Below are positions 7,154 to 57,010 of a DNA stretch of 64,000 nt, in pieces; the stretch's first letter is position 1, and each line of letters begins with the position of its first letter. Under the pieces are notes generated by a model, which made no database searches, was not told the DNA's origin, and worked only from the letters and a program-made list of their open reading frames with translations. Source of the stretch: Krasilnikoviella flava (GTDB taxonomy: Bacteria; Actinomycetota; Actinomycetes; Actinomycetales; Cellulomonadaceae); contig NZ_FUZQ01000002.1 of NCBI RefSeq assembly GCF_900167525.1, positions 62,001-126,000 on the forward strand, read 5' to 3'. Both the position numbers and the translations under genes were made by a program.

Positions 7154-8200
7154 ATGAGTGAGACCACCGCACCCGCCCTCACGCTGCCGGCGGGCGCCGC
7201 CGGGTCCCGCATCGTCGGCCTCGGGCACCACCAGCCCGAGCGGGTCATGACCAACGACGACATCGCGCAGCTCGTCGAGACCAACGACGAGTGGATCCGC
7301 TCGCGGACCGGCATCGTCACCCGGCACGTCGCGGCCGACGACGTCACCGTCGCGGACATGGCGACCGCCGCCGCCCGGCATGCGCTCGACGACGCGGGAG
7401 TCGCCGGCACCGACGTCGACCTCGTGGTCGTCGCGACCACGACGGCCGTCGACCGCTCGCCCAACACCGCCGGCCGCGTGGCGTACGCGCTGCGCACCGG
7501 CGTGCAGCCGGGCGCCAGCACGCCCGAGGGCGAGGACGAGCCGGACCTGCGCAACGTCGTCGGGCCCGCCGTCATCGACCTCAACACCGCCTGCTCCGGC
7601 TTCGCGTACGCCGTCGGAGTCGCCGACCAGGCCATCCGCGCCGGCTCGGCGCGCACCGCCGTGGTCGTCGGGGCGGAGAAGCTCACGTCCGTCACCGACT
7701 GGTCCGACCGCAGCACGTGCATCCTCACCGCGGACGGCGCCGGCGCGGTCGTGCTGCAGGCTGCGGACGCCCCCGCCGTCGGGCCCGTCGTGTGGGGCTC
7801 CGAGCCCGAGCTGACGCCCGCCGTCGTGATCGAGGAGCCGGCGGGCACGTTCGTCCAGGACGGCCGCGCCGTGTTCAAGTGGGCGATCACCCGCGCCGCC
7901 GACCGTGCCCGCCGGATCGTGGAGGCCTCGGGCCTCACGCTCGACGACATCGGCGTGCTGGCCGCGCACCAGGCCAACCTGCGCATCATCGAGCCGCTCG
8001 CCAAGTCGCTGGGCCTCGAGGACCGCATCGTCCTCGCCGACATCACGGAGTCCGGCAACACGTCGGCCGCGTCCATCCCGATGGGCCTGTCCAAGTGGTG
8101 GCACGCGGGCAAGATCCCCGCGAGCACCCCGGCGCTGCTCTTCGGCTTCGGCGGCGGCTTCACCTGGGCCGGCCAGGTCGTCATCACCCCGTCGAGGTAG
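7154..8200 (+). CDS. fabH: 3-oxoacyl-ACP synthase III (FabH-type KAS III)
   Basis: 348 residues with the complete catalytic triad of the condensing enzyme that joins a short acyl-CoA to malonyl-ACP: Cys147 (LNTACSGF), His272 (AAHQAN) and Asn302 (SGNTSAAS). The C-terminal FGFGGGFTWAGQVV is typical. A loop insertion of about 15 residues (TPEGEDEPDLRN region) precedes the catalytic strand. The gene is not next to other fab genes, so it may be a second, specialised KAS III copy. ATG 7154 gives the usual N-terminus; ATG 7142 is in frame. Its stop codon TAG (8198-8200) is part of the first copy of a 20-bp repeat array. Confidence 0.9.
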   Translation: MSETTAPALTLPAGAAGSRIVGLGHHQPERVMTNDDIAQLVETNDEWIRSRTGIVTRHVAADDVTVADMATAAARHALDDAGVAGTDVDLVVVATTTAVDRSPNTAGRVAYALRTGVQPGASTPEGEDEPDLRNVVGPAVIDLNTACSGFAYAVGVADQAIRAGSARTAVVVGAEKLTSVTDWSDRSTCILTADGAGAVVLQAADAPAVGPVVWGSEPELTPAVVIEEPAGTFVQDGRAVFKWAITRAADRARRIVEASGLTLDDIGVLAAHQANLRIIEPLAKSLGLEDRIVLADITESGNTSAASIPMGLSKWWHAGKIPASTPALLFGFGGGFTWAGQVVITPSR

Positions 8201-8360
8201 TCCGAACCGCGCCGAGGTAGTCCGAACCCTGCCGAGGTAGTTCGAACCGCGCCGAGGTAGTCCGAACCCTGCCGAGGTAGTTCGAACCGCGCCGAGGTAG
8301 TGGTCCAGTCCACTACCTCGGCGAGATCGGAACTACCTCGGCGAGAGGGGAACTACCTCG
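8191..8360. repeat. Array of 20-bp GAGGTAGT repeats, cluster 1
   Basis: Six head-to-tail copies of GCCGAGGTAGTYCGAACC plus 2 nt run with exact 20-bp spacing from 8191. The sixth copy is followed by three inverted copies (ACTACCTCG). At the switch, 8291-8303 and 8310-8322 form a perfect 13-bp hairpin with a 6-nt loop. The first copy contains the fabH stop codon. Related arrays lie at 9825-9908 and 56898-57010. Confidence 0.95.
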
Positions 8361-8398
8361 TGAGGGTGGGGCCGAGGGCGGCACTCGGGTAGGCTGTC

Positions 8399-8412
8399 GG
8401 AAACCGCTTACC
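8399..8412. promoter_or_regulatory. LacI-type operator candidate
   Basis: GGAAACCGCTTACC matches the GGAAACCGGTTNCC pattern of the two sites at 14655-14702, with two mismatched pairs. It lies 39 bp before the oxidoreductase start, suggesting that gene shares the LacI regulator of the pectate lyase/ABC locus. Confidence 0.5.
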
Positions 8413-8450
8413 CGACGTCGCCGTCGTGGCGACACCCTAGGAGATCGACG

Positions 8451-9818
8451 ATGCCCTCCGTCCCCGCCGCCCCGACCGGTCCCGACCGTCGCCGCTACGC
8501 CGTCGCGGGCACCGGACACCGCGCCGCCATGTACGTGAACGCCCTGATCGGGGACCACGCCGACGACGGCGAGATCGTCGCGTGGGTGGAGCCCAACCCG
8601 GTGCGCGCGGCCGTGCACGAGGCCAAGGTCGCCGCCGCCGTGGGTGGCGAGCGCCCCGTCTACCACCCCGACCACCTCGAGAAGGCGCTCGACGAGCAGC
8701 GGGTCGACCGCCTCGTCGTGACGTCCGTGGACAACACTCACGCGGACCTCGTGTCCCGCGCCCTGCGCGCGGGCGTCGACGTCGTCGTCGAGAAGCCCGT
8801 CGCCGCCACCGAGGCCGAGGCGCGGCAGATCGCCGACGCCGTCACCGAGACCGGTCGCGACCTCACGATGACGTTCAACTACCGCTACTCCCCGCGGAAC
8901 TCCGCGCTGCGCGAGGTCATCGCGTCCGGCGAGATCGGGCAGGTGCTGAGCGTCCACTTCGACTGGGCCCTCGACACCGTGCACGGTGCCGACTACTTCC
9001 GCCGCTGGCACCGCGAGAAGGTCAACAACGGCGGCCTGCTGGTGCACAAGTCCAGCCACCACTTCGACCTCGTCAACTGGTGGATCGACGCCGTCCCTCA
9101 GCGTGTCTTCGCCAGCGGCGGGCGCCGGTTCTACGGCGACGACGCCGCGCACGCGGTGGGCTACGAGCCGACGGCGGGGGAGCAGGCCCTGAACGAGCAG
9201 GGCGTGGACCCGTGGCGGATCGACGTCGACGCCGACCCGCACCTCGCCGAGCTGTACGGGCCCGAGGCGCAGGCCGTGGACGGCTACCGGCGCGACCGCA
9301 GCGTGTTCGACCCGGGCATCACCACTGAGGACACCCTCGGGCTCGTCGTCGAGTACGCGGGGGGCCCGGTGCTCACCTACTCGCTCACCGCCAGCGCGCC
9401 GTGGGAGGGGTACCGCGTGGTCGTCAACGGCTCGCGCGGCCGCGCCGAGCTCGAGGTGGTCGAGCGCGGGTCCGTCGTCTTCGGCGCCGACGGCAGGGCG
9501 ACCGTCGACCCGAGCTTCACCGCGACCTTCGGCGAGGACACCGTGCGCCCCGAGGGCGAGCGGCTCGTGGTGCAGAAGCACTGGGAGCGTGCGGAGGAGC
9601 GGCCGATCGTCGCCGTCGGGCCCGGCGGTCACGGCGGGGGCGACGCCCTGCTCCTCGCGGACGTCTTCCGCGGCCGCACCGAGGCCGACCCGCTGGGCCG
9701 CGCCGCCGGGTTCCGCGACGGCCTGCGCGCGTCCGGCATCGGCTACGCCGGCAACCGGTCGCTCGCCACGGGCGACCCCGTGCGCCTCGATGACCTGGGC
9801 CTCGGCATCGACCTCTGA
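8451..9818 (+). CDS. Gfo/Idh/MocA-family NAD(P)-dependent oxidoreductase
   Basis: 455 residues. The N-terminal Rossmann fold begins RYAVAGTGHRAAMYVNAL, followed by the family's VVVEKPVAAT strand with the nicotinamide-contacting Lys, and MTFNYRYSPRNSALREVIASGEIGQV leading into the C-terminal beta-sheet substrate domain. The large size (usual about 350) comes from loops in the C-terminal half (residues about 230-300). Enzymes of this type oxidise or epimerise sugars and sugar derivatives. Sitting behind a LacI-like operator and next to a pectate lyase, it probably handles a plant sugar acid, but the substrate is unknown. It is convergent with the pectate lyase; the gap is a repeat hairpin. Confidence 0.85.
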   Translation: MPSVPAAPTGPDRRRYAVAGTGHRAAMYVNALIGDHADDGEIVAWVEPNPVRAAVHEAKVAAAVGGERPVYHPDHLEKALDEQRVDRLVVTSVDNTHADLVSRALRAGVDVVVEKPVAATEAEARQIADAVTETGRDLTMTFNYRYSPRNSALREVIASGEIGQVLSVHFDWALDTVHGADYFRRWHREKVNNGGLLVHKSSHHFDLVNWWIDAVPQRVFASGGRRFYGDDAAHAVGYEPTAGEQALNEQGVDPWRIDVDADPHLAELYGPEAQAVDGYRRDRSVFDPGITTEDTLGLVVEYAGGPVLTYSLTASAPWEGYRVVVNGSRGRAELEVVERGSVVFGADGRATVDPSFTATFGEDTVRPEGERLVVQKHWERAEERPIVAVGPGGHGGGDALLLADVFRGRTEADPLGRAAGFRDGLRASGIGYAGNRSLATGDPVRLDDLGLGIDL

Positions 9819-9824
9819 CCCCCA

Positions 9825-9908
9825 CGCCGAGGTAGTTCCTGGCCCTCGGGACAGGAACTACCTCGGCGGTGCTCGAACTACCTCGGCGGTGCTCGAACTA
9901 CCTCGGCG
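9825..9908. repeat. GAGGTAGT repeats, cluster 2, with 17-bp hairpin
   Basis: 9825-9841 and 9852-9868 are exact inverted copies (CGCCGAGGTAGTTCCTG) around a 10-nt loop. Two further copies of GAACTACCTCGGCG follow at 20-bp spacing (9875 and 9895). The last supplies the TAG stop of the pectate lyase gene on the minus strand. The hairpin fills the gap between convergent genes and may act as a bidirectional terminator. Confidence 0.92.
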
Positions 9909-11367
9909 TGGTGGAGCGGAGCACGCCCGCCCCGGCGCCGGCGTCGACGACGGCGGGCACGGCCCGGGCGGGCAGCAGCCGGTAGCGGTAGTGGTCGGAC
10001 GGCGTCCACCGGGCGTCGTCGGCGAGGGGAGCGGCGGCCGTGGAGTTGAACGCGCCCACGACGTCGACGGGACGACCGTTCACCAGGGTGCCGGCCTCGC
10101 GGAGCATGGTGCCGCCGTAGGCGCCGACCGCCCGCGCGGGGTCGACGCCCGGCGCGAGCCGCAGCGCGTTGTTCTCCAAGACGAGGCTCGACTCCTTGCC
10201 GGCGCCCCAGAAGTACTGGAACTCCTCCGCCGTCGACTGCGCGTAGGAGTTGTCGTAGACGTGCACGTCCCCGAAGCGGACGCGCGGCGCGCGCTGGCCG
10301 ATGTCCTGGAAATGGTTGTGGTGGATCGTCACCCGGTGCTGGCCCCGGTCCTGCAGCCGCGAGTCGGACGAGCCGATGATCATCGTCTTGTCGTGCGTCT
10401 CGAAGCGGTTCCAGGACACGGTCACCAGGTCGCCGCCGTGGGTCACGTCGAGCAGGCCGTCGTGGATCTCGAACGGGCGGCCGAACACCTGCGGCAGCGA
10501 CGACGCCGGGTGGTCGCCGTCGTCGAAGGTGTTGTGGTCCACCCACACGCCGGTGGACGTCCAGACCGACAGGTTGTCGTACGCCGAGTTCCAGCTGCCG
10601 AGCTCCCCGTCGGTGGGGTCCCACTGCGGGAAGCAGTCGCGGCCGTCCGAGAGGGTCAGGTTGCGCACGATGACGTTGTGCGAGTCGCGGACCCGGAGGT
10701 TGGCGCCCACGACCCGGGCGTCGCCCACGCCGACGATCGTGACGTTCGAGCCGACGTGCACCTGCGTCTGCGCCGCCTGCACCCGGGCGGCGGCGACGCG
10801 CGCGTCCTCCAGCGGCCCGCCGGGCTCGTCGGTGCCCCAGACGGCCGGGTCGTACGCCGCGACGTAGTCGTCCATGGTGAACGGGCCGGCGCCGGCCACC
10901 GGGACCTGGTCGGCGAAGTCCTGGCAGTCCAGCGCCGCGCCGTCCGCACCCGTGAACGCATCGATCGTGCCGCGCACGTAGACGACGCGCGGCACCTCGA
11001 GCCCGCGGCCGTCGTCCAGGTCGGCGCCCGCACGGCCGCCCAGGGCGTCGCGCAGCTCGGCCCACGTGTCGACGACGTACACCTCGGAGGCCGATGCCGC
11101 GGCGCCGCCGGTGACCGGTTCGGCCTCCCGCGGGACGCCCTCGGGGGCGGTGGTCGTGGCGACGGACGCCCACCCGTCGGCACCGGGCGTGACGACCTGG
11201 CGGCCGAGGTCGGTGCGCGGGTGAGGGCCGGGCCCACCGGCGCCGCCGTGCGCGGCGGCCGTCGCGGCCCCGGACGTGAGGAGCAGGACGGCGGCGGCCA
11301 GCCCGGCGACCGCCCGTGAGCGGTGGCGGCCGCGCGGGCGCGCCAGGGCAGGGGAGAGGGGGTGCAT
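9898..11367 (-). CDS. Secreted pectate lyase, PL1 type
   Basis: 489 residues. A signal peptide with a long Ala/Leu core ends near residue 39. The mature protein is a parallel beta-helix lyase: calcium-site region SVWTSTGVWVDHNTFDDGDH, core strands VTVSWNRFETHDKTMIIG, HRVTIHHNHF, and the RAPRVRFG motif carrying the catalytic arginine, then VHVYDNSYAQST. It cleaves polygalacturonate by beta-elimination outside the cell. The ATG at 11367 has AAGGAG at good spacing. It is the last gene of a leftward operon after the LacI-DUF6807 and oxidoreductase genes. Its stop codon TAG is contributed by a GCCGAGGTAG repeat. Confidence 0.92.
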   Translation of the reverse strand: MHPLSPALARPRGRHRSRAVAGLAAAVLLLTSGAATAAAHGGAGGPGPHPRTDLGRQVVTPGADGWASVATTTAPEGVPREAEPVTGGAAASASEVYVVDTWAELRDALGGRAGADLDDGRGLEVPRVVYVRGTIDAFTGADGAALDCQDFADQVPVAGAGPFTMDDYVAAYDPAVWGTDEPGGPLEDARVAAARVQAAQTQVHVGSNVTIVGVGDARVVGANLRVRDSHNVIVRNLTLSDGRDCFPQWDPTDGELGSWNSAYDNLSVWTSTGVWVDHNTFDDGDHPASSLPQVFGRPFEIHDGLLDVTHGGDLVTVSWNRFETHDKTMIIGSSDSRLQDRGQHRVTIHHNHFQDIGQRAPRVRFGDVHVYDNSYAQSTAEEFQYFWGAGKESSLVLENNALRLAPGVDPARAVGAYGGTMLREAGTLVNGRPVDVVGAFNSTAAAPLADDARWTPSDHYRYRLLPARAVPAVVDAGAGAGVLRSTTPR

Positions 11368-11401
11368 GGTGCGAAACTCCTTCGTTCCGGCGGCGGCACC
11401 C

Positions 11402-11421
11402 GGCCGACGACGGTGTCGGCC
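11402..11421. other. Intercistronic hairpin before the pectate lyase gene
   Basis: GGCCGAC/GTCGGCC arms with a 6-nt loop lie in the 73-nt gap between the oxidoreductase stop and the pectate lyase ribosome site. It could reduce read-through or stabilise mRNA; function is speculative. Confidence 0.35.
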
Positions 11422-11440
11422 CGGGGAAGGGTGAGGCAGC

Positions 11441-12598
11441 TCAGGCGGTCCAGGGCGCCCCGAGCTCGGCGAACGTGCGCTGCGTGCGCGCGACCTCGGC
11501 GCACCAGTGCTCGACGTCGCGCACCACGGGGTGGCGCTCGTCGCCGTCGCCCTGCCACTCGACGTGCTCGGGCGCGATCGGGGCCGGGTCGGCGCTGGTG
11601 CGCACCGCCTCGAGCACGCGCATGAACGCGCCGGTGTCGCGGACGTCGCACAGCAGGGGCCGGCGGTCGTCGGCGCGCGCGGCGAGCAGGTCCTCCAGCA
11701 GGGAGCTGCGCCCGTAGGTCTTGTCCATCTGCACGGCGTCGGTACGCAGCAGCAGACGGTCGTGCTCGTACTCGAGGACGAGCTCGCCGCGGGTGCCGCG
11801 CACCACCACGCGCGCGGGCGAGCGCTCGGGCGCGCACAGCGAGAGCCCGAAGCCGTAGCGCCGACCGCCGGCGTCCTTGACACGCACGGACGACGTGTCG
11901 TCGGCCTCGATCGGGTTGGCGCGGTACAGGTCGGTGTCCACCCAGGCGACGTCCTGCGCGGTGGTGGCGCCACCGAGCCGCAGCGTGGTCGCGACCGCGT
12001 GCGCCAGCGGGTTGGTCACGACGCCGTCGACGACGTCCCGGCCGTCGAGCCGGCGCCGGCCCGCCCATGCGGCGCGCTTCCAGTAGGACGCCGTGCGCAC
12101 CCAGGTGCCGACGGCGCCGAGTCCCTGCACCTCGCCGATCTCGCCGCGGGCCAGGAGGTCGGCCGCCGCGGGCAGCGCGTGCGAGCCGAACGTCTGGAAG
12201 CCCACCTGGCAGCGACGGCCCGTGCGCTCGGCCACCGCGACGAGCTCCGCGTGCTCCGCGAGCGAGGCCGTCGTCGGCTTCTCCAGCAGCACGTCGATAC
12301 CGGCCTCCATCGCGGCGCGCGCCAGCGGAAGGTGCGTCGGGATGGGGGTGCTCAGCACCACGACGTCCACGTGCGTCGACGGCGTGGACAGCAGGTCGCC
12401 GAGTGTCGGGAACCAGGGCGCCCCGGCATCGTGCGCGTCGTGACCCGGGCCCGGCTCGCGCGGGTCGACGACGGCGGCGAGCCGCGCTCGCCCGGCGCGC
12501 TGCAGCTCGAGCACGCGGCGCACGTGGGAGGCGCCGTGGCCGTGCAGGCCCACCACCGCGATCTGCGGGGCGAGGCCGTCGGGGGTCGAGTGCGTCAT
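11441..12598 (-). CDS. Gfo/Idh/MocA-family oxidoreductase
   Basis: 385 residues. The N-terminal nucleotide-binding fold starts PQIAVVGLHGHGASHVRRVLEL, the conserved VLLEKPTTAS motif carries the coenzyme-contacting Lys, and the C-terminal half includes GVVTNPLAHAVATTLRLGG with the family's His. It lies 55 nt downstream of the LacI-DUF6807 fusion gene and upstream of the pectate lyase on the same strand. DUF6807 and Gfo/Idh/MocA genes are commonly neighbours, so they probably act on the same sugar-derived substrate. The exact reaction is not known. Confidence 0.85.
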   Translation of the reverse strand: MTHSTPDGLAPQIAVVGLHGHGASHVRRVLELQRAGRARLAAVVDPREPGPGHDAHDAGAPWFPTLGDLLSTPSTHVDVVVLSTPIPTHLPLARAAMEAGIDVLLEKPTTASLAEHAELVAVAERTGRRCQVGFQTFGSHALPAAADLLARGEIGEVQGLGAVGTWVRTASYWKRAAWAGRRRLDGRDVVDGVVTNPLAHAVATTLRLGGATTAQDVAWVDTDLYRANPIEADDTSSVRVKDAGGRRYGFGLSLCAPERSPARVVVRGTRGELVLEYEHDRLLLRTDAVQMDKTYGRSSLLEDLLAARADDRRPLLCDVRDTGAFMRVLEAVRTSADPAPIAPEHVEWQGDGDERHPVVRDVEHWCAEVARTQRTFAELGAPWTA

Positions 12599-12653
12599 CG
12601 TCGTCCTGTCGGTGTCGTCCCGGCGCGCCGGGGTCTGGAGGTCGGGGCGGGCG

Positions 12654-14615
12654 TCAGCGCAGCGTCGCGGCGAGCGCGGCCGCCTCGGAGTGGTCGAGGG
12701 CGCGGTCCACGAGCGCGGCCACCACCCCGGTCTCGACGGTGCCGCCGGCGGGCACGACGAGCGGGGTGTCCCAGGCCAGCGCGGGGCCGGCGCCCGGGTA
12801 CTCGGCGGCGCGCAGGAACCAGTGCCGCGGCGGGGACGTCTGCGCGAGCAGGAGCGTCGTCGGGCGGTCCTGCTCGTACGGGTCGTGGTGCTGCTGCACG
12901 TACGCCACCCACGGCGACGTGCTGCCGTGCGCGCGCTTCTCGCCCTCGCCCGACTCCGACAGCACGACCGTGCCCTGCGAGATCGGCGCGCGCCAGAAGA
13001 CGCCGCCGTACCCCGCGCCCGGGCGGCCGTTGGTGGCGGGGGAGCGGATCTCCAGCGGCCCGTGCGACGCGTGCAGCGTGGTCCGCCACTCGAGCGCCCA
13101 CGTGTCGTCGCCGAGGAGGCGGGCGCCGAGCCGGCGCTGCTCCTCGAGCAGGGGCTGGCCGTGCTCGTCGTCCCAGCGCACCGTGTCGTGCAGCACGTGC
13201 GGGGCGAGCGGGTCGACCTCGGCGCGGGTGCTCACCTGCCGCCCGTGGTTCGGCAGCAGGGTCGGGCCGACGTCGGCCATAAAGGTGCGACCGCCCCAGA
13301 AGCTCGTGCCGTTGACGTCCGGCACCGCCACGCTGACGCCGTAGTGGTGCCGGTGGTCCACCGGCTCGGACTCGGTGAGAGGGACGCCCGCCAGCGAGTG
13401 CACGGGGTGCAGGTACGGCCGCGGCGAGTGGATGGCGGGCAGTCGTTCGCCGTCGACGTACCGCGCGAGCGGCACCCGGTCGCGCGTGTGCCGCAGCACG
13501 ATCTCGCGCGGCTCGACGGACCATGCCGGACCCGGGTCGACGACGTCCGCCTCGGGCGCGGCCGCGGGCGCGGGCTCGGTGACGACGGCACGCTGCAGGG
13601 CGCGGGGCGCCGGGCCGGTGCTGGAGCGCGCCTCGAGCCGGGCCGTGAACCGGGTGCTGGTGGCCGCGTGCGCGTCGTCGTCGATGACGGCGTGCAGCTC
13701 GCGCCACGCCTGCCGGCCGAGCTCTGCCTGCGGCACGGAGACCGTGGTGAGGCCGGGCGTGGCGTAGCGCGCCAGGTCGATGTCGTCGTAGCCGGCCACC
13801 GAGATGTCGCCCGGCACGGCCACGCCCGCCTCGTTGAGCGCGGCCAGAAGGCCGAACGCGACGAGGTCGTTGTACGCGACGACGGCCGTGGCGCGGCTGG
13901 CGAGCACCTCGCCCGCGGCGGCGTGGCCGGACGCGAGGTCGGCGCCCACGGGGAGCTCGACGATCTCCAGGTCGGGGTGGCGCTCGCGGGCGGTGGCGAG
14001 ACCGGCGCGCCGGGCGACGTCGGTGGCCGCGGCCCGGGGCCCGGCGAGGTACGCCAGCCGACGGTGCCCGAGCCCCACGAGATGCTCGACGACCTGCACG
14101 GTGGCGTCCTCGTAGTCGATGACCAGGCTCGGCGTGGCCGGGTGCTCGACGGCGCGGTTGATCACGGCCGCGGGCGTCACGAGGGGGAGCAGGGCGTCGA
14201 GCGCGGCGCCCGGCATCCGGGGCGCGACCAGGATCAGGGCGTCGCAGCGCATGCGGGCCTCGCGCGCGATGGCCGCCTCCTCCGAGGGGTCCTCCGCGGC
14301 GTCGGCCACGAGCACGCGGTAGCCGTCCTCGGCGGCGGCGGAGGTGACGCCGCGCAGGATCTGCTGGAACACCGGGTTGCCGAGGTCGGGCACGACGAGC
14401 GCGACGGTCTCCGTGCGCCCCAGGGACAGGCTGCGTGCCACGTTGCTGGGGCGGTAGTTCAGGTCGATCGCCGCCTCCTGAACCCGCGCGGCGATGGCCG
14501 GGTCCACGGTGCTGCGACCGTTCATCACGCGGGAGACCGTGGCGCGCGAGACGCCGGCGGCGGTGGCGACGTCGGCGATGGTCACGGACGGTCGCCGGAC
14601 GTTCAGCTCAGGCAT
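12654..14615 (-). CDS. LacI-family regulator fused to a DUF6807 (PmoA-like) domain
   Basis: 653 residues in one frame. Residues about 8-60 are a LacI HTH (TIADVATAAGVSRATVSRVMNG). Residues 65-340 are the periplasmic-binding-like sensor (VALVVPDLGNPVFQQILRGV, GDISVAGYDDIDLARY). An Ala/Pro linker (about 345-360) leads to a second domain to the end: PYLHPVHSLAGVPLTESEPVDHRHHYG, GGRTFMADVGPTLLPNHGRQV, WVAYVQQHHDPY. That pattern with a His-rich HRHHYG is typical of DUF6807/PmoA proteins, normally stand-alone. GGGAGG precedes the ATG at 14615. It probably represses its own operon and the divergent ABC operon through the sites at 14655-14702, with the second domain acting on or sensing the same compound. 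Confidence 0.87.
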   Translation of the reverse strand: MPELNVRRPSVTIADVATAAGVSRATVSRVMNGRSTVDPAIAARVQEAAIDLNYRPSNVARSLSLGRTETVALVVPDLGNPVFQQILRGVTSAAAEDGYRVLVADAAEDPSEEAAIAREARMRCDALILVAPRMPGAALDALLPLVTPAAVINRAVEHPATPSLVIDYEDATVQVVEHLVGLGHRRLAYLAGPRAAATDVARRAGLATARERHPDLEIVELPVGADLASGHAAAGEVLASRATAVVAYNDLVAFGLLAALNEAGVAVPGDISVAGYDDIDLARYATPGLTTVSVPQAELGRQAWRELHAVIDDDAHAATSTRFTARLEARSSTGPAPRALQRAVVTEPAPAAAPEADVVDPGPAWSVEPREIVLRHTRDRVPLARYVDGERLPAIHSPRPYLHPVHSLAGVPLTESEPVDHRHHYGVSVAVPDVNGTSFWGGRTFMADVGPTLLPNHGRQVSTRAEVDPLAPHVLHDTVRWDDEHGQPLLEEQRRLGARLLGDDTWALEWRTTLHASHGPLEIRSPATNGRPGAGYGGVFWRAPISQGTVVLSESGEGEKRAHGSTSPWVAYVQQHHDPYEQDRPTTLLLAQTSPPRHWFLRAAEYPGAGPALAWDTPLVVPAGGTVETGVVAALVDRALDHSEAAALAATLR

Positions 14616-14654
14616 CGATGCCTCCCGGGGCTCACGAGCCGACCGTACACCATT

Positions 14655-49508: not shown

Positions 49509-49594
49509 GGGAGCATCTGATCACGGCCCGCGCCAGGACTGCGCCCCCCCGCGGGACCGCACCCCCGTCCCCGCGCCGGCGTAGGGTGGACGGT

Positions 49595-49639: not shown

Positions 49640-49688
49640 CCCGACGCGCCCACGTCCCCGTCCCGAGCTGCCCGTCGCAGCCGGGACG
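49621..49688 (+). promoter_or_regulatory. trpS: Transcription attenuator of trpS
   Basis: Four complementary arms can be seen: 1 GCTGC (49621-49625), 2 GCAGC (49630-49634), 3 GCTGC (49667-49671), 4 GCAGC (49677-49681). Arms 3-4 are nested in a longer stem CGTCCCG/CGGGACG (49659-49665 with 49682-49688), a strong terminator-like hairpin. Arm 2 can pair with 1 or 3. A ribosome stalled on the Trp codons covers arm 1, freeing 2 to pair with 3 and disrupting the 3-4 hairpin. No U-run follows, so the stop could also be at the level of trpS translation. Confidence 0.65.
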
Positions 49689-49741
49689 TCGTCATGTCCG
49701 GACCGGACCGACGGGCGGCGATCCCCCGAGGAGCCGACCCG

Positions 49742-50878
49742 ATGACTGCACCGACCGTCCTGACCGCCCCGACCGCGCCGGCCGTCCCGACCTCCGCCGC
49801 ACCCACGGCGACGGCGAGCGCCGCCGTCGCGCAAGCCCGTTCCGCCGAGATCGAGGCCGAGATCGCGCGCGACCCGGGCCGCTTCCGCGTCCTGACCGGC
49901 GACCGGCCGACCGGCGCCCTGCACCTCGGCCACCTGCTCGCCACGCTCGACAACCGGGTGCGCCTGCAGGACGCCGGCGTCGACGTCGTCCTCGTCGTCG
50001 CCGACTACCAGGTCATCACCGACCGCGACGACGCGGGCGACCTGCCCGCCGTCGTGCGCGAGGTGGTGCTCGACTACCTCGCCGCGGGCATCGACCCGGC
50101 GCGCTCCACGGTGTTCACCCACTCCTCGGTGCCGGCGCTGAACCAGCTGCTGCTGCCGTTCCTGTCGCTGGTCAGCGTGGCCGAGCTGGAGCGCAACCCC
50201 ACCGTCAAGGCGGAGGCGGCCGACGCCGAGAGGCGCCAGGGGCGCGGCATGTCCGGGCTGCTGTTCACGTACCCGGTGCACCAGGCCGCCGACATCCTGT
50301 TCTGCCACGGCAACCTCGTGCCGGTGGGCCTGGACCAGCTGCCGCACCTCGAGACCACGCGGACCGTGGCGCGGCGGTTCAACCAGCGCTACGCGGCCGC
50401 CCGCCCCTACTTCCCGGAGCCGGAGGCCCTGCTCACGCCGTCGCTCACGGTGCTCGGCAACGACGGCGCCAAGATGAGCAAGTCGCGCGGCAACGCCCTG
50501 GAGCTGCGGGCGTCCGAGGACGAGACCGCGCGGTTCTTCCGCCGTGCCCGCACGGACTCCGAGCGCCGGATCGCCTTCGACCCGGAGGGTCGGCCCGAGG
50601 TGGCGAACCTGCTGCGGATCGGCGCGCACTTCGCCGGCACGACGCCGGAGGACCTCGCCGCGTCGGTCGGGGACGCGGGCGCCGGGCGGCTCAAGGCGGT
50701 CGTGACGGAGGCGGTCGTCGAGGGGTTGCGACCGCTGCGCGAGCGGCGGGTGGCGCTGGCCGCGGACGCCCCCGTCGTCGTCCGCGACGTCCTGGCGCGG
50801 GGCAACGCGCGCGCGAACGACGTCGCCGAACGCACGCTCGCCGACGTCCGCGAGCTCATGGGCACCGTCTACTCCTGA
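49742..50878 (+). CDS. trpS: Tryptophan--tRNA ligase
   Basis: 378 residues. Class I synthetase: HIGH-type motif PTGALHLGHLLATLDNRV, GRGMSGLLFTYPVHQAADIL (Trp-binding region), and KMSKSRGN. It charges tRNA-Trp with tryptophan. ATG 49742 has GAGGAG nearby; an in-frame ATG at 49694 would extend it over the attenuator. The first 40 residues are a low-complexity Ala/Pro/Thr extension. Expression is predicted to rise when charged tRNA-Trp is scarce. Confidence 0.95.
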   Translation: MTAPTVLTAPTAPAVPTSAAPTATASAAVAQARSAEIEAEIARDPGRFRVLTGDRPTGALHLGHLLATLDNRVRLQDAGVDVVLVVADYQVITDRDDAGDLPAVVREVVLDYLAAGIDPARSTVFTHSSVPALNQLLLPFLSLVSVAELERNPTVKAEAADAERRQGRGMSGLLFTYPVHQAADILFCHGNLVPVGLDQLPHLETTRTVARRFNQRYAAARPYFPEPEALLTPSLTVLGNDGAKMSKSRGNALELRASEDETARFFRRARTDSERRIAFDPEGRPEVANLLRIGAHFAGTTPEDLAASVGDAGAGRLKAVVTEAVVEGLRPLRERRVALAADAPVVVRDVLARGNARANDVAERTLADVRELMGTVYS

Positions 50879-50892
50879 CGACCCCGGGTACG

Positions 50893-50957
50893 GCATCGAG
50901 CGTGCTGACTTGATCCTCAAACAGGAGGTTTGAGGATCAAGTCAGCACGCTCGATGC
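50893..50957. repeat. Perfect 29-bp inverted repeat between trpS and pckG
   Basis: Arms 50893-50921 and 50929-50957 are exact reverse complements with a 7-nt loop (CAGGAGG). The arms start GCATCGAGCGTGCTGACTTG and are less GC-rich than surrounding DNA. It lies between convergent stops and could terminate both ways, but it is far longer than a usual terminator and has no T-run, so it may be a mobile palindromic element. Confidence 0.9.
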
Positions 50958-50982
50958 GTCGGTCGGGCCCGGGGTCGGTGGG

Positions 50983-52920
50983 TCAGGCCGCGCCGAGCCG
51001 CTCGCGCAGCAGGGAGAGCTGCGCCCAGAGCTGGTCGGGCACGCGGCCGGCGAAGGTGTCGAAGAACTCGCCGGTCAGCGCCGCCTCGGCGAGCCACGCC
51101 TCGGCGGGGACGTCGAAGAGGGCGACGAGGTCGTCGTCGGACAGGTCGAGGCCGTCCGTGCGCAGCGCGCCCGGCGCGGGCAGCAGGCCGACGGGGGAGT
51201 GCACGGCACCCGCGTCGGTGCGCAGGCCGCGCGCCCGGTCCAGCTGGGTGACGACCCACTCGACGACGCGCGAGTTCTCGCCGAACCCGGGCCACAGGAA
51301 GCTGCCGTCGGCGCCCTTGCGGAACCAGTTCACCTGGAACACCTTGGGCCGCTTGTCGGCGTCGAGGCCCCTGCCGACCGCGAGCCAGTGCGACCAGTGG
51401 TCGGCCATGTTGTAGCCGCAGAACGGCATCATCGCGAACGGGTCGCGGCGCAGCTCGCCGACCGTGCCCTCCGCCGCGGCGGTGCGTTCGGAGCTGATCG
51501 TGGCGCCCATGAAGACGCCGTGGTCCCAGCTGGTCGCCTGCGCCACGAGCGGCACGTTCGTCGCGCGACGGCCGCCGAAGATCACCGCGTCCACGGGCAC
51601 GCCCGCCGGGTCCTCCCACGAGTCCGCGATGGACGGGCACTGTGCGGCGGCGACGGTGAAGCGCGAGTTCGGGTGCGCGGCCGGGGTGTCGGAGTCCGGC
51701 GTCCAGTCGTTCCCCTGCCAGTCGACCAGGTGCGCGGGCGGCTCCGGGGTGAGGCCCTCCCACCACACGTCGCCGTCGTCGGTCAGGGCCACGTTCGTGA
51801 AGATCACGTCGTGGGAGAGCGTGTCGATCGCCGTCGGGTTGGTCTCGACGCCGGTGCCGGGGGCGACGCCGAAGAATCCGGCCTCGGGGTTGATGGCGCG
51901 CAGACGTCCGTCCGGGCCGGGGCGCATCCACACGATGTCGTCGCCGATGGTCTCGACCGTCCAGCCGGGGATGGTCGGGCGCAGCATCGCGAGGTTGGTC
52001 TTGCCGCAGGCGCTCGGGAACGCGGCGGCCAGGTGGTACCGCCGCTGCTCCGGCGAGGTGACGCGGATGAGCAGCATGTGCTCGGCGAGCCAGCCCTCGT
52101 CGCGCGCCATCGCCGACGCGATGCGCAGCGCGAAGCACTTCTTGCCGAGCAGCGCGTTGCCGCCGTAGCCCGAGCCGTACGACCAGATCTCGCGGGTCTC
52201 GGGGTAGTGGACGATGTACTTCGTGTCGTTGCAGGGCCACGGCACGTCGGCCTCGCCGTCGGCCAGGGGAGCGCCCACCGAGTGCACGGCGGGCACCCAC
52301 TGCTGGCCGCCGTCGATGAGGTCGAGGACGGCGCTCGAGACGCGGGTCATGACGTGCATCGACACGACGACGTACGGCGAGTCCGTGATCTCGATGCCCA
52401 CCTGCGAGATCGGCCCGCCGACGGGGCCCATGGAGAACGGCACCACGTACATCGTGCGGCCGCGCATCGAGCCGGCGAAGACGTCGTCCAGCTCGGCGCG
52501 CATCTGCGCGGGGGCGCGCCAGTTGTTGGTCGGGCCGGCGTCCTCCTCGCGCTCCGAGCAGATGAACGTGCGCGACTCGACGCGCGCGACGTCGGACGGG
52601 TTCGACCGGGCGAGGTAGGAGTTCGGGCGCTTGGTCTCGTCGAGCCTGACCAGCGTGCCGGCCTCCACCAACCCGTCGAGCAGGCGCTGCTTCTCGGCGG
52701 CCGAGCCGTCGCACCACACGATCTCGTCGGGCTGCGTGAGCTCGGCGACCTGGCGCACCCACGCGCGGGCGTCCCTGCCGGACCTGCGCGGGGCGGCGGC
52801 GGTGCGCGACGACGCGGCGCCCGCCTGCTCGCGGGGCGCGGTCGTGCCGGGGGCCAGGGCGTCGGGCGCGAGCTCGGCGATCGCGAGTCGCGTGCGGCGC
52901 GGGTTCGCGGTGAAGGTCAT
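50983..52920 (-). CDS. pckG: Phosphoenolpyruvate carboxykinase (GTP)
   Basis: 645 residues. The GTP-type signature [15 protein letters not shown] carries the active-site Cys and P-loop; [12 protein letters not shown] is the kinase-2 region; [25 protein letters not shown] and [28 protein letters not shown] are conserved substrate motifs. It converts oxaloacetate and GTP to PEP, the entry to gluconeogenesis from lactate, acetate and amino-acid carbon, which fits the lut and leucine operons here. N-terminal extension of about 45 residues (Ala/Thr-rich). Divergent from the RamB-like gene. Confidence 0.96.
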
Positions 52921-53014
52921 CGGGTGCTCCGTCCGTCGAGGCCCCGGCCAGCGCTGCCGGGTGGGCTGCTTCCAGCGTCCCCCCCCGGGTAGCCGACTTT
53001 CCAGCACTTCGACG

Positions 53015-53036
53015 GTGAAGATTTGCCGATCTTCAC
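53015..53036. promoter_or_regulatory. Palindromic operator between pckG and ramB
   Basis: GTGAAGAT (53015-53022) and ATCTTCAC (53029-53036) form perfect 8-bp arms around TTGCCG, starting 35 bp before the ramB ATG. The TTTGC at its centre recalls RamB-binding DNA. Probable autoregulatory site that could also act on pckG. Confidence 0.55.
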
Positions 53037-53049
53037 GTACCGTCAAACC

Positions 53050-54528
53050 ATGGCTGCCAAGGACGCCGGCGGGGCGGAATCTCCGGACCTCATCACCCTC
53101 GGTCGGCGCATCCGGCACGCGCGTACGACGCACGGGCTCACGCTCGAGGCGCTGGGGGAGCGGGTCGGCTCGGCGCCGAGCCTGCTGTCGCTGATCGAGA
53201 ACGGCCGCCGCGAGCCGCGGCTGTCGCTGCTGCGCTCGATCGCCGACGCCGTCGGCGTGGCCGTGCCCGACCTGCTGGCCGACGAGCCGCCGTCGCGCCG
53301 GGCCGAGCTGGAGATCGCCCTCGAGCGGGCGCAGCGCGGCCCGCTCTTCGGGGCGCTCGGTCTGCCGTCGGTGAAGCCCAGCCAGAAGCTGCCGATGCCG
53401 GTGCTGGAACAGCTCGTCGGCCTGCACACGGAGCTGTCGCGACGCGAGGAGGAGGCGATCGCCACCCCGGAGGAGGCGCGGCGGGCGAACACCGAGCTGC
53501 GGCACGAGCGGCAGGAGCGCGACAACTACTTCCCGCAGATCGAGGCCCTCGGGGAGGACCTCACCCGGCGCGCCGGGTACGCCGGGGCGGGTGCCCTCAC
53601 CCACCGCACGGTGGCCCGCATGGCCGAGCAGATGGGGCTGACCCTCCTGCACGTCGACGACCTGCCCCGGTCCGCGCGGTCGGTGACCGACCTCAAGAAC
53701 GGCCGGATCTACCTGCCGCCGGCGTCCATCCCGGGCGGGCACGGGCTGCGCTCCCTGGCGCTGCAGGCGATCGCGCACCGCGTGCTGGGGCACGAGCGGC
53801 CCCGCAGCTACGCCGAGTTCCTGCGCCAGCGGGTGGAGATCACGTACTTCGCGGCGAGCTGCCTCATCCCGCAGTCGGTGGCGGTGGAGTTCCTGCAGCG
53901 GCGCAAGCGCGAGAAGGACCTGGCGGTCGAGGACTTCCGCGACGCGTTCGGCGTCACGCACGAGGCGGCCGCCATGCGCATGACCAACCTCGCCACCGTG
54001 CACCTCGGCATCCCGCTGCACTTCCTGCGCGTCGGTGACGACGGCGCCCTGTTCCGGGGGTACGCGAACGACGGGCTGCCCCTGCCGCAGGACGTGACGG
54101 GCGCCATCGAGGGGCAGCTCGTGTGCCGGTGGTGGGCGGGGCGCGAGGCGTTCGCCCGCCGCGACCGGGCCACCGAGTCCTACCAGTACACCGACACCCC
54201 GGCGGGCACGTTCTGGGACTCCGTGCAGACCGGTACAGGCGCGGACGGGCGGCAGTTCTCCATCACCGTGGGCGTGCCGTACGCGCACGCCAAGTGGTTC
54301 CGCGGCCGCGACACCCAGGTGCGGCACGCCTCCACCTGCCCCGACCCGGCCTGCTGCCAGCGCCCGCCCGCCGACCTGGCCGAGCGGTGGGACGGTGTCG
54401 CCTGGCCCAGCGCCCGCATGCACCAGCAGGTGCTCGCCGCGCTGCCGCGCGGCGCGTTCCCCGGCGTCGACGACACCGACGTCTTCGGCTTCCTCCAGCG
54501 GCACGCGCCCGCAGGGGAGGCGCTCTGA
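53050..54528 (+). CDS. ramB: RamB-like XRE/short-chain-fatty-acyl transcriptional regulator
   Basis: 492 residues. HTH_3 N-terminus ([43 protein letters not shown]), an IrrE-like central segment ([79 protein letters not shown]) in which the HExxH zinc motif is degenerate (AIAHRVLGH), and the C-terminal ScfR/DUF2083 domain with [14 protein letters not shown]. RamB represses glyoxylate-cycle and acetate genes in corynebacteria and mycobacteria. Here it is divergent from pckG, so it probably adjusts carbon flow at PEP/oxaloacetate and the glyoxylate cycle. Confidence 0.87.
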
Positions 54529-54587
54529 CGTCTGCCCCGGGCTGGGACGATCCCGGCCGCCGGCCGGCACGCGGCGGGGACGCCGGC

Positions 54588-55886
54588 TCAGTCGAGGCGG
54601 ACCTCACGGATCCGGCGGTCGTCCACCGCCGTGACGCGCAGGACGTGCGGGCCGGACCCGCCGTCCACGGCGTCGTCGTCCGCGCCGTCCACGGCGACCG
54701 TGTCACCCTCCGTGGCGAGGCGACCGAGCCCTGCCAGGACGTAGCCGGCGACCGTCTCGTACGGGCCGTCGGGCAGCTCGACGCCGGTCAGCCGGGCGAA
54801 GTCCTCGATCGTGAGCCCGGCGTCGTAGGTGCCCGCCACGCGCACCGCGGCGAGCGGGTCGTGCTCGTCGCGGATGTCGCCCACCAGCTCCTCGACGAGG
54901 TCCTCGAGCGTGACGATCCCGTCCGTCCCGCCGTACTCGTCGACGACGAGTGCGAGGTGCGTCCGGGTGCGCTGCATCTCCGCGAGCGTCGGCAGCAGCC
55001 GTCCGGTCGCGGGCAGGTCCAGCACGGGCCGGGCGACGTCGCCCACGGTGCGGCGGTCGCCGGCCGGCGCTCCTGCACCGCGCGAGAGGTCGCGCACGTG
55101 CACGAACCCGAGCACGTCGTCGACGTCCTCGCCCGTGACCGGGTAGCGCGAGTACGGCAGGTCACGCGTCCGTCGCTCCGCCTCGGTGAGGGTGAGGCCG
55201 GCCCGCAGGAAGACGACGTCGGCCCGCGGGCGCATGACCTCCCCCAGGCTGCGCTCCGAGGCGGCGAAGACGTCCGAGAGGATGCGGCGCTCGTCCTCGT
55301 GCAGGCCCGGGTGGGCGGCGACGAGGTCACGCAGCTCCTGCTCGCTGATCTCCTCCGAGCGCACGCTCGGGTCGCCCCCGAGCAGGCGCACGACGGCGTC
55401 GGTCGAGCGGGACAGCAGCCAGATGACGGGGCGCATCAGGACCGCGAAGCGGTCCAGCGGCGGGCCGACGACGAGCGCGACCTGCGCGGTGCGCTGCAGC
55501 GCGATCCGCTTCGGCACCAGCTCGCCCAGCACCAGCGACAGATAGGCGATGACGAGGGTGAGGCCGACGAGCGCGGCGGTCGCCGCCGCACCGGCGGGCA
55601 GGCCGGCGGACTCCAGCGCGGGAGCGACGTCGGGGGCGAGGGTCGACGCGCCGTACGCGGCGGAGAAGAAGCCAGCCACCGTGACGCCGATCTGCACCGC
55701 CGCGAGGAAGCGGTTCGGGTCGCGGGCGATCGCCGCCACCCGGCGTCCGCGCGGGCTGCTGCGCTCGAGCTGGTCGATCTGCGTGCCCCGCAGGGAGACG
55801 AGCGCGAACTCGGTCCCGGCGAACACGCCGCCCAGGAGCACGAAGAGCAGGACGAGCGCGATGTTCCACCAGGTGTCCGCGTCCAC
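54588..55886 (-). CDS. CNNM/CorC-type membrane protein with CBS pair
   Basis: 432 residues from GTG 55886. N-terminal CNNM (DUF21) domain with about four membrane helices ([49 protein letters not shown]), then two CBS motifs ([75 protein letters not shown]) and the C-terminal CorC_HlyC domain. Such proteins take part in Mg2+/Co2+ export or homeostasis. Convergent with ramB. Confidence 0.9.
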
Positions 55887-55996
55887 CGGGGTCCTCTCGG
55901 TCGGTCGTCGGCCGAGGCGCCGACGGTCGCCCCGGTGTCGTCACCGGGTGAACGCGTCGCGGCGGGGCCGGGTTCCGTCGGGGCCCGGGCGGCCGG

Positions 55997-56788
55997 TCAG
56001 CGGAAGCGCTGTGCCGCCAGCGGCGCGGCCTCGGCGAGGCCCCGCACGGCGGGGTGCGCGTCGTCGTCCGCGCCGGCGGCCAGGACGTCGTTCATCGGGC
56101 CGGAGGCGACGAACGTGCCGTCCGCGAGGACGTGCACCGTGGAGCACAGCCGGCCGACGAGCTCGACGTCGTGCGAGACGAGCAGCACGGCGGTCCCCTC
56201 GGCGCGCGTGGCGTCGGTGAGGCGACGCACGATCTCGCCGCGCATGGCCGGGTCGACGGCGGTCAACGGCTCGTCCAGGAGCAGCGCCCCGGGCCGGGTC
56301 GCGAGGGCGAGCGCCAGCGCGAGTCGCTGCTTCTCCCCGCCCGAGAGCGAGTACACCGTGCGCTTCGCGAAGTGCGGCTCGAGCGCGACGTCGTCCAGCA
56401 GGTCGGCCACGGTGCGGCCGCTCGCCCGGCCGGCCTTGCGGGCGTCCGACAGCGCGCCCGAGACGGCGCGGTCGACGGTCCACCGCAGGTCGACGTCGAG
56501 CCCGTTCTGCGCGACCGTGCGCACCGCCGCGCGGAACTTCTTCTTGTCCCGGCGCCCGAGCTTGCCGACCGTGCGGCCGTCGAAGGTCACGTGCCCCTCG
56601 CGGATGCGCAGGTGCCCCAGCAGCGCCTGCACCAGCGTCGACTTGCCCGCGCCCGACTCGCCGACCACGCCGACGGGCTCCGCGCCGGGCAGCAGCGCCA
56701 GCTCGATCCCCTCCAGGATCGCGGGGCCGCCGTAGCCGACCACCAGGTCGGTCGCGCGCAGGATCGGGGCGGGGGAGGTGGAGCTCAT
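55997..56788 (-). CDS. ABC transporter ATP-binding protein (orphan, peptide/nickel-type)
   Basis: 263 residues with Walker A GESGAGKST, Q-loop VAQNGLD, signature LSGGEKQRLALALALA, Walker B ALLLDEPLTAVD and the switch His in LVSHDVEL. The sequence is nearest in style to DppD/DppF-type ATPases. No permease or binding protein is adjacent, so it must work with subunits encoded elsewhere or be a remnant. It ends 110 bp before the CNNM start on the same strand. Confidence 0.85.
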   Translation of the reverse strand: MSSTSPAPILRATDLVVGYGGPAILEGIELALLPGAEPVGVVGESGAGKSTLVQALLGHLRIREGHVTFDGRTVGKLGRRDKKKFRAAVRTVAQNGLDVDLRWTVDRAVSGALSDARKAGRASGRTVADLLDDVALEPHFAKRTVYSLSGGEKQRLALALALATRPGALLLDEPLTAVDPAMRGEIVRRLTDATRAEGTAVLLVSHDVELVGRLCSTVHVLADGTFVASGPMNDVLAAGADDDAHPAVRGLAEAAPLAAQRFR

Positions 56789-56897
56789 GCTGGTGTCACC
56801 TTCATGTGTGCGTGCGCCGGACGACGGGGCCGGCCGCTAGTCCGACGAACGACGGTACCCCGCGGTTCCCGCACCGCGGCCCGGCGGTCCGGATCCC

Positions 56898-57010
56898 GGC
56901 GAGGTAGTTCGAACCGTGCCGAGGTAGTTCCGGGCTCCGTGAGGTAGTTCGGGCCGTGCCGAGGTAGTTCCTGTCGTGCCGAAGTAGTCCCCGGCTCCTC
57001 GAGGTAGTCC
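56898..57010. repeat. GAGGTAGT repeats, cluster 3
   Basis: Six copies of GAGGTAGTYC (one is GAAGTAGTCC) start at 56901, 56921, 56941, 56961, 56981 and 57001, exactly 20 bp apart, all in one direction. The 10 bp between cores varies more than in cluster 1. The array fills the divergent gap between the ABC ATPase and the NTF2-like gene. Confidence 0.95.

What the first reader, a model, noticed from the sequence alone, without database searches (positions are those of the whole stretch)
8191..57010. Three arrays of a 20-bp-period GAGGTAGT repeat
Clusters at 8191-8360 (six direct then three inverted copies), 9825-9908 (hairpin plus two copies) and 56898-57010 (six copies at exactly 20-bp steps) share CGAGGTAGTTC. 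Spacing is constant while the bases between cores vary in cluster 3, so the core and the period seem selected. Two helical turns per unit would put protein sites on one face of DNA. No spacer diversity or cas genes fit CRISPR.
Basis: seen in the sequence. Interest (0 to 1): 0.72.

Follow-up and report, generated by a model that had tools for sequence, protein, structure and literature searches.

The report
Lineage-specific repeat words at gene ends
The three arrays belong to a genome-wide set of short repeated words that sit at the ends of genes in the bacterium Isoptericola, and related species carry different words at the same gene ends, which hints at a fast-changing way of marking or ending genes.

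Summary
GAGGTAGT occurs 19 times in the window (0.54 expected); GAGGTAGTTC occurs 164 times in the genome (4 for the reversed control). The 20-bp step is rigid (94 of 100). This is not local slippage.

By its named relatives the genus is Isoptericola. Arrays sit at 3' ends: in the host, 26 of 32 gene-sense edges have the stop codon inside the first word or at most 15 bp before it; convergent gaps are preferred (16 against 5.9 expected). Array 3, in a divergent gap, is an exception. Two-armed arrays fold into strong hairpins.

Words differ between lineages: A (CGAGGTAG plus a genome-specific tail, period 20) in 11 of 18 genomes, B (GAGATAGAGA, period 22) in 4, C (GCTGACTCGC, period 20) in 3, controls zero. 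At orthologous gene ends G000 has A where G010 or G004 has B; at one end G012 has C, with the native stop codon inside the word.

The REP transposase family is absent (0 of 18), words are not clearly enriched in genes, and unit lengths of 19-22 bp speak against one helical register. Best reading: terminator-type 3'-end repeats whose word is kept uniform by an unidentified reader or copying process. The mechanism is inferred.

The parts
8193..8360 (.). Array 1, family A: six gene-sense copies of CGAGGTAG(T) at 20-bp steps, an inner hairpin, three inverted copies
   Evidence: RNA fold of its part 8225-8362 z = -8.8
8198..8200 (+). TAG stop of the ketoacyl-ACP synthase III-like gene, inside the first word of array 1 (AGG TAG)
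   Evidence: the gene ends in Arg-stop in 17 of 17 orthologues examined
7154..8200 (+). 3-oxoacyl-ACP synthase III-like gene (PF08541, PF08545) whose 3' end carries array 1
8451..9818 (+). Gfo/Idh/MocA-type oxidoreductase gene lying between arrays 1 and 2
9828..9905 (.). Array 2, family A, between convergent genes: one + copy and three inverted copies; inner hairpin with 17-bp arms
   Evidence: fold z = -5.8
9898..11367 (-). Pectate lyase-like gene (PF00544); its TAG stop lies inside the last inverted word of array 2
56900..57009 (+). Array 3, family A: six direct copies (one with a mismatch), no inverted arm, in a divergent gap between an ABC-transporter ATPase gene (-) and a SnoaL-like gene (+)
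   Evidence: one of 3 divergent-gap arrays among 30 outside genes in the G000 DNA examined

Best explanation
The arrays are members of a family of interspersed 3'-end repeat elements. A basic element is a word of 8-11 bp that in families A, B and C contains a stop codon, repeated head to tail in units of fixed length (20 bp for this family), often with an inverted second arm. It sits at the native stop codon or just after it, most often between convergent genes. Transcribed from either side, a two-armed array folds into long stem-loops, and the repeated word puts stop codons in rotating reading frames, so the element most likely works as a bidirectional gene-end barrier (translation stop plus transcription end or RNA 3'-end protection). 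Arrays grow and shrink by duplication and loss of units (inferred from repeated gap sequences). The word is kept the same across the genome, and differs as a whole between lineages, because something in trans reads or copies it; that factor is not identified. Shown: the words, periods, gene-end placement, predicted hairpins, compensatory changes in the palindromic subfamily, and different words at the same orthologous sites.
For: Genome-wide counts against near-zero controls. Placement: in G000 26 of 32 gene-sense edges have the stop inside the first word (11) or within 15 bp upstream (15); G010 B 22 of 24; G004 B 25 of 32; convergent gaps 16 observed against 5.9 expected in G000. Period 20 in 94 of 100 steps in G000 A; 22 in 43 of 54 (G010) and 63 of 72 (G004) for B. 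A word-free test of repeated 8-mers in intergenic DNA is highest at distance 20 in G000, G001, G009, G012 and G002 and at 22 in G004. Orthologous sites: 22 G010 B sites were held, 10 of them with a G000 counterpart in hand; of these 6 carry an A array of two or more copies in G000, 2 a single A copy, 2 none. The ketoacyl synthase 3' end in 17 genomes ends in Arg-stop in all 17, with word A at the stop in 8, B in 1, C in 2 (in one of these the exact C word starts 15 nt after the stop), none in 6. Palindromic subfamily of 22 sequences, chosen by word and geometry: 93.3% of cells paired, 14 of 30 pairs with changes on both sides, covariation 0.265 against 0.104 shuffled. RNA fold z -8.8 (part of array 1) and -5.8 (array 2). 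Several orthologous or other gene ends without these words carry unrelated hairpins.
Against: No U-tract terminator was found in window 8100-10000, which holds arrays 1 and 2. In G000 14 of 31 arrays outside genes have one orientation only (16 of 30 if an arm must have two copies), including array 3, whose fold z is only -3.3. Array 3 and two other G000 arrays lie in divergent gaps, with no gene end beside them. Gaps between words do not pair across the two arms in G000 (57% against 53% shuffled), so hairpin pairing does not explain the unit there. Only 1 of 11 convergent gaps in the window has an array, so this is not a general terminator. Family C is much less tied to the stop codon (stop in word 1 of 7 edges in G012, 0 of 5 in G009) and can have the two orientations back to back. 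In the preset G001 sample convergent gaps are not enriched (2 of 9 against 1.5 expected). A hairpin role alone does not explain a uniform word. No expression data were available.
Confidence: 0.5

Rival explanations
1. Arrays are binding sites of a sequence-specific DNA-binding protein that assembles in register along DNA (nucleoid, insulator, roadblock or ParB-like), and the lineage words follow the changing specificity of that protein; RNA folding is incidental.
For: In G000 only word and period are constrained, the gaps are free and unpaired between arms; one-orientation arrays are common (14 of 31); the 3-base tail after CGAGGTAG is largely uniform per genome (52 of 55 CGC in G001, 112 of 144 TTC/TCC in G000, 20 of 27 TAC in G005), though mixed in G007, G011 and I. 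halotolerans.
Against: Unit length 19, 20 or 22 by family at equivalent sites for A and B; placement on the stop codon is not expected for a nucleoid protein; compensatory changes in the palindromic subfamily argue for folding there; no candidate gene found (none could be searched for by gene content).
Confidence: 0.25
2. Mobile palindromic repeats of the REP/BIME or miniature-transposon type that insert at gene ends and were replaced by other families in other species.
For: A 75-column palindromic element with 84% mean column identity is dispersed in genus g8 and Isoptericola G012; recurring inner hairpins in B (AGCTCGGAC, 3 arrays) and A (GGTC/GGAC types with a 10-nt loop, 5 of 17 arrays); published REPs also lie downstream of genes in unidirectional and convergent gaps (PMC3733652, abstract).
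Against: Y1_Tnp/RAYT family PF01797 in 0 of 18 genomes although 5 of 14 control genomes ring; other transposases were not searched. The 20-bp unit is not itself a palindrome (logo, judged by eye); [quoted passage not shown] the word sits on a conserved stop codon; array sites are shared between species with changed content.
Confidence: 0.15
3. Uptake words for natural transformation, like the DUS dialects of Neisseriaceae.
For: Lineage dialects, a stop codon in the word, inverted pairs at terminators and two dialects in one genome are described for DUS (PMC3630211, passages). Here dialects, a stop codon in words A-C, inverted pairs at gene ends and two families in G005 and G010 are seen.
Against: Words are concentrated outside genes. 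Inside genes 7 of 8 word tests lie within codon-shuffled expectation; CGAGGTAG in G001 is mildly above it (43 against 29.0, 2 of 60 shuffles as high). Low genome copy number; tandem 20-bp arrays are not a described DUS feature in the passages seen.
Confidence: 0.06
4. Local replication slippage without function.
For: Repeated gap sequences inside single arrays show unit duplication.
Against: Same word at many independent loci with reversed controls of 0 to 4, and a 20-bp period kept while gaps diverge.
Confidence: 0.04

Closest known systems
REP/BIME repeats (GTAG- and CGTC-tagged palindromes; Di Nocera et al. 2013, PMC3733652, abstract and passages seen)
   Same: Interspersed, downstream of genes, in unidirectional and convergent gaps, inverted pairs fold into larger hairpins, some families species-specific, several families per genome
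   Different: Here the unit is a non-palindromic 19-22 bp tandem unit in fixed register; head-to-tail units dominate; the word can hold the native stop codon; no Y1_Tnp (RAYT) family in 18 genomes; GTAG of family A lies in paired columns, not as an unpaired tag
DNA uptake sequence dialects (Dialects of the DNA Uptake Sequence in Neisseriaceae, 2013, PMC3630211, passages seen)
   Same: Short word uniform per lineage with dialects, stop codon in the word, inverted pairs, two dialects can coexist
   Different: Not clearly enriched in coding DNA, far fewer copies (recalled for DUS), tandem arrays at a rigid period, no uptake tested
Bidirectional terminators of actinobacteria without U-tract (recalled)
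   Same: Strong stem-loops just after stop codons, between convergent genes
   Different: Ordinary terminators are not known to me to share a genome-wide word, tandem units or lineage dialects
Iterons / multi-site transposon ends (recalled)
   Same: Direct repeats of about 19-22 bp in register, with inverted arms
   Different: Dispersed at many gene ends; no replication or transposition gene among the seven array-side window proteins scanned

Membership tests
REP / RAYT-associated repeats | unit is itself a 20-40 bp palindrome | tested here: not met
   unit logos show no internal palindrome, judged by eye; whole arrays are the palindromes
REP / RAYT-associated repeats | unpaired GTAG or CGTC tag at one end | tested here: not met
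   GTAG of family A lies in paired columns of the palindromic form (20 to 22 of 22 sequences paired); words B and C lack GTAG
REP / RAYT-associated repeats | RAYT (Y1_Tnp) in the genome | tested here: not met
   PF01797 0 of 18, controls ring in 5 of 14; CGTC REPs also lack a dedicated transposase (PMC3733652 abstract)
REP / RAYT-associated repeats | extragenic, downstream of genes | tested here: met
   (27 of 30 G000 arrays outside genes have a gene end beside the gap; 3 do not)
DNA uptake sequences | lineage-specific word dialects | tested here: met
DNA uptake sequences | over-represented genome-wide, coding regions included | tested here: not met
   7 of 8 word tests in coding DNA within codon-shuffled expectation, CGAGGTAG in G001 mildly above (43 against 29.0)
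DNA uptake sequences | promotes uptake of DNA | not testable with these tools
   needs transformation assay
Intrinsic terminators | stable hairpin at 3' end | tested here: met
   for two-armed arrays; not for one-orientation arrays
Intrinsic terminators | U-tract after the hairpin | tested here: not met
   window 8100-10000 only, 0 found; actinobacterial terminators often lack it (recalled)
CRISPR array | repeat of about 21-48 bp with unique spacers of similar length (recalled) | tested here: not met
   constant part 8-11 bp, gap 9-12 bp; no Rfam family reached its gathering score in the window
CRISPR array | cas genes | not tested
   no cas search was run
Nucleoid/ParB-type binding array | constant sites in one helical register | tested here: inconclusive
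   rigid within a family but 19, 20 or 22 bp between families
Nucleoid/ParB-type binding array | a protein that binds the site | not testable with these tools
   needs pulldown; no candidate gene was found

The most novel reading that the evidence does not exclude
Isoptericola and relatives mark gene ends with a lineage-specific word that is read by a fast-changing trans-acting factor; when the factor changes, the words at many gene ends are rewritten in place (A, B or C, with the unit length going from 20 to 22 bp between A and B), so each lineage has its own gene-end dialect. This would be a new kind of sequence-specific 3'-end recognition system, with word turnover like that of uptake sequences but serving termination or insulation between convergent genes.
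Probability: 0.25. Interest if true: 0.85.

Novelty: new variant of a known kind. Interest (0 to 1): 0.62.

Why it matters
If the words are read by a factor, then the natural swaps of word at the same gene ends in related species are ready-made experiments on what a bacterial 3'-end signal is and how a whole genome changes its dialect. If they are only copied, they are a dispersed-repeat family that spreads or is homogenised without the Y1 transposase known for REPs. Either way they account for many intergenic hairpins in this genus, and possibly for some assembly breaks: several array copies lie about 25-65 bases from contig starts in two draft genomes.

Tried and rejected
RAYT/REP machinery: PF01797 0 of 18 genomes. 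Rfam: no family at gathering threshold in the window. Uptake words: words concentrated outside genes and mostly at codon-shuffled expectation inside genes. RNA pairing as the full explanation: gaps do not pair across arms in G000 (57% against 53% shuffled) although they do in G010 B (94% against 52%, 9 gaps) and partly in G004 B (60% against 46%). Phage origin: no C triple in viral contigs; 1, 2 and 10 viral contigs matched the A triple, B pair and CGAGGTAG pair patterns; of these only L079 was read, and it is an unrelated 10-bp tandem repeat; the others were not read. Gene cassettes bounded by arrays (L005, L042, L135/L157): looked like composite elements at first, but the arrays follow the 3'-end rule, and L135 (G010) and L157 (G004) are orthologous with B arrays on both sides, so no mobile cassette is claimed. 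Streptomyces TraB recognition repeats as a parallel (recalled): no paper held all terms; not pursued. G003: no array word in the 60 kb and in three short orthologue loci, but the two-mismatch search gave 5 matches there, two of them with GAGGTGGT, so degenerate remnants are possible.

Literature: searches found no description of these arrays in the open-access library; subscription papers are not covered. Papers looked at: PMC3630211 (passages), PMC3733652 (abstract, outline and passages), PMC12306157 (passages), PMC2267715 (passages); the rest only as search listings.

Limits. Gene calls come from my own codon-usage script, not from a published caller; starts and small genes may be wrong. G000, G010 and G004 array loci were chosen because they hold the word. 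G001 and G012 stretches were taken at preset steps; so were G008 and G013, while one stretch each of the first G004, G009, G013, G003 and G008 samples was laid at or near the known orthologous locus. One search printed the window arrays twice, so its tallies are not used; the recount is.
Full report
WHAT IS THERE. The three clusters are real and at the stated places. GAGGTAGT occurs 19 times in the window against 0.54 expected from shuffles. In the whole genome (G000, 4.85 Mb, 10 contigs) GAGGTAGTTC occurs 164 times, the reversed pattern 4 times; two copies at exactly 20 bp occur 148 times, the reversed control 0.

ORGANISM. Named GTDB loci with the two-armed pattern are Isoptericola (halotolerans CG 23, QY 916, 4D.3) and one Cellulosimicrobium (19 stretches). 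G005 is QY 916 by identity of loci (L068 with L082 and L078 with L201, 100%), and G010 has a contig of the length of the 4D.3 contig (417,468). I infer from these that the genus of the window is Isoptericola. The genus searches covered 18 genomes including the host.

UNIT. In 134 array units of G000 (selected on the 8-mer and an exact neighbour at 20 bp) the base before is C in 99% and T/C then C follow; the next bases are weakly constrained. Same-strand steps are 20 in 94 of 100, 19 in 3, 40 in 3. The tail after CGAGGTAG is largely uniform inside a genome and differs between genomes: G000 TTC 79 and TCC 33 of 144, G005 TAC 20 of 27, G001 CGC 52 of 55, G006 6 of 6 and G015 11 of 11 CGC, G014 AAC 4 of 6; G007 (13) and G011 (8) are mixed, and so is I. 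halotolerans (32 units). G001, G006 and G015 fall with G014 in one clade of a two-protein tree (G006 and G015 with only 21% of columns).

PLACEMENT. Using my own gene caller, of 31 G000 arrays 1 is inside a gene, 16 lie between convergent genes (5.9 expected from the background of gaps), 11 in same-direction gaps and 3, array 3 among them, in divergent gaps (7.5 expected). Of 32 edges where copies read in the direction of the adjoining gene, 11 have the gene's stop codon inside the first word (AGG TAG) and 15 more start within 15 bp after the stop. For B arrays the figures are 15 and 7 of 24 (G010) and 13 and 12 of 32 (G004). In the preset samples: G001 9 arrays, none in divergent gaps (2.2 expected) and 2 convergent (1.5 expected); G012 (family C) 8 arrays, 6 convergent, 1 divergent. 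In 80 kb of G009 (C; one of four stretches laid around a known array) 6 arrays, none divergent. Family C is much less tied to the stop codon: 1 of 7 and 0 of 5 edges have the stop in the word, and 1 of 7 and 1 of 5 lie within 15 bp. Copies inside genes: 1 in the window; in G001 54 single and 5 two-copy clusters of the 7-mer GAGGTAG. Against codon-shuffled genes, 7 of 8 word tests are within expectation and CGAGGTAG in G001 is mildly above (43 against 29.0, 2 of 60 shuffles as high).

OTHER WORDS. Orthologous gaps in other species showed other arrays in the same place. Family B, GAGATAGAGA at period 22: G004 61, G010 41, G005 36, G000 1, none in the other 14, controls 0. Family C, GCTGACTCGC at period 20: G012 163, G009 147, G002 2, none in 15, controls 0. 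Family D, CGAGATCGAC at period 20: G016 18, G017 10, G012 7, G008 4, G009 3, none in 13. Family A with free tail: 11 of 18 Isoptericola genomes, and 35 of 200 genomes of the family (the 18 included) in 7 of 25 genera, controls 0; 0 to 25 pairs per genome in genus g8. With up to two mismatches 17 of 18 Isoptericola genomes have some match, controls 0 or 1 per strand. A word-free test (same 8-mer twice in intergenic DNA at 14-30 bp) is highest at 20 in G001 (642 against 2-44 at other distances), G012 (292), G009 (346), G002 (62) and the window (154), and at 22 in G004 (64, next 30 at 19); G008 (highest 109 at 17) and G003 (26 at 15) show no such peak. In G013, Ns excluded, distance 19 is one of three high distances (167; 14 and 28 give 186 and 130) and the word GGTCGGCA at 19 bp recurs at 7 sites. 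So 16 of 18 genomes hold at least one exact pair of A-D (G002 with 2 and G008 with 4 pairs only), G013 has its own word, and G003 showed none in what was examined.

SAME SITE, DIFFERENT WORD. Of 22 G010 B sites held, 10 have their G000 counterpart in hand: 6 carry an A array of two or more copies in G000, 2 a single A copy (one of them next to a B hairpin shared with G010), and 2 no A array. The G000 loci were chosen by word A, but they span about 4 kb on each side, so the coincidence of position is informative. Four G004 B sites (that of window array 2, L142, L146, L151) also match A arrays of G000; a fifth (L140) matched only in part and was not judged. Seven G005 arrays match G000 arrays at the same sites, with most gap sequences turned over; in the 7 unit pairings (not independent) whose 9-base gaps agree in 7 or more bases, the tails differ. 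At the 3' end of the ketoacyl synthase gene all 17 orthologues end in Arg-stop; the stop lies in word A in 8 (AGG TAG), in B in 1 (AGA TAG), in C in 1 (CGC TGA; a second C genome has a near-match at the stop and the exact word 15 nt further on), and there is no word in 6. There the array is at a native gene end and does not cut the gene short. At another site (L125 against L028) the B genome's protein is two residues longer (my reading), so the stop can shift.

FOLDING. Part of array 1 and array 2 fold far better than shuffles as RNA (z -8.8 and -5.8); array 3 less so (z -3.3). A palindromic subfamily of family A, two units per arm, 22 sequences from G012 (8) and three genomes of genus g8 (14), chosen by word and geometry, has 93.3% of cells paired, 14 of 30 pairs changed on both sides, covariation score 0.265 against 0.104 in shuffles and at most 0.059 in slid controls. 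In G010 the gaps of the two arms match 94% against 52% shuffled (9 gaps), in G004 60% against 46% (17), in G000 57% against 53% (25). So folding is under constraint, or recently formed, in some lineages, while in G000 only word and period are. No U-tract terminator was found in window 8100-10000.

READING. I take these as gene-end elements that can act in both directions, most likely as barriers to translation and transcription, with a word kept uniform by an unidentified reader or copying process. Periods of 20 and 22 are not multiples of three, so successive copies place the stop codon in different frames; this is suggestive, but B also has steps of 21 (10 of 54 and 8 of 72) and it does not explain the uniform word. 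The helical-face idea is weakened because unit length is 19, 20 or 22 by family. Against the terminator reading: 14 of 31 G000 arrays outside genes have one orientation only, and only 1 of 11 convergent gaps in the window carries an array.

KNOWN KINDS. REPs share the gene-end placement and inverted pairs (PMC3733652, abstract and passages), but the palindromic unit, the unpaired tag and the RAYT are not met. Uptake-sequence dialects share the lineage words, the stop codon in the word and inverted pairs (PMC3630211, passages), but coding enrichment is not met. I found no description of these arrays in nine searches of an open-access library, which does not cover subscription journals.

Noticed in passing
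L237-L250 (genus g8) and L231-L236, L002, L015 (G012): A 75-column palindromic element with consensus CCGCGAGGTAGAACCnCCGGTCGCGAGGTAG and its inverse, dispersed mostly near gene ends with compensatory changes; looks like the two-unit form of family A.
   Followed up: yes
L119:4537, L110:16025, L133 about 1420: A further hairpin word, CGAGCATGTGGTTG or near variants, in gaps of G013, G008 and G010.
   Followed up: no
L100:15033, L100:17571, L102:731 (G002): Three hairpins in 60 kb share a word like CTGTGGGCATGAAATCTGC, a possible further family; G002 also has one array of a C-like word (CCTGACTC) at 20 bp in L102 near 16762.
   Followed up: partly
G005 and G010 contig ends (for example G010:C10:40-71, C15:41-72, C20:38-69): Array copies lie a few dozen bases from contig ends in two draft genomes, so the hairpins or repeats may break assemblies and copy numbers may be underestimates.
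   Followed up: no
L107:6170 and L108:4687 (G004): Divergent gaps with inverted repeats holding CGGCAGTTCGTGATC, probably an operator family unrelated to the arrays.
   Followed up: no
L103:3272 and L106:12657: GAAACCGGTTGCT inverted repeats in divergent gaps of G003 and G004, resembling LacI-type operators (recalled).
   Followed up: no
G012:C1:401687-401955, 1165208-1165497; L186:5190-5540: Family C arrays in G012 also occur back to back (inverted copies first, direct copies after), opposite to the usual head-to-head order of family A.
   Followed up: partly
L079:10750-10800: A viral contig matching the triple pattern holds a plain 10-bp tandem repeat (GCGAGGTAGT), unrelated to the arrays.
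   Followed up: yes
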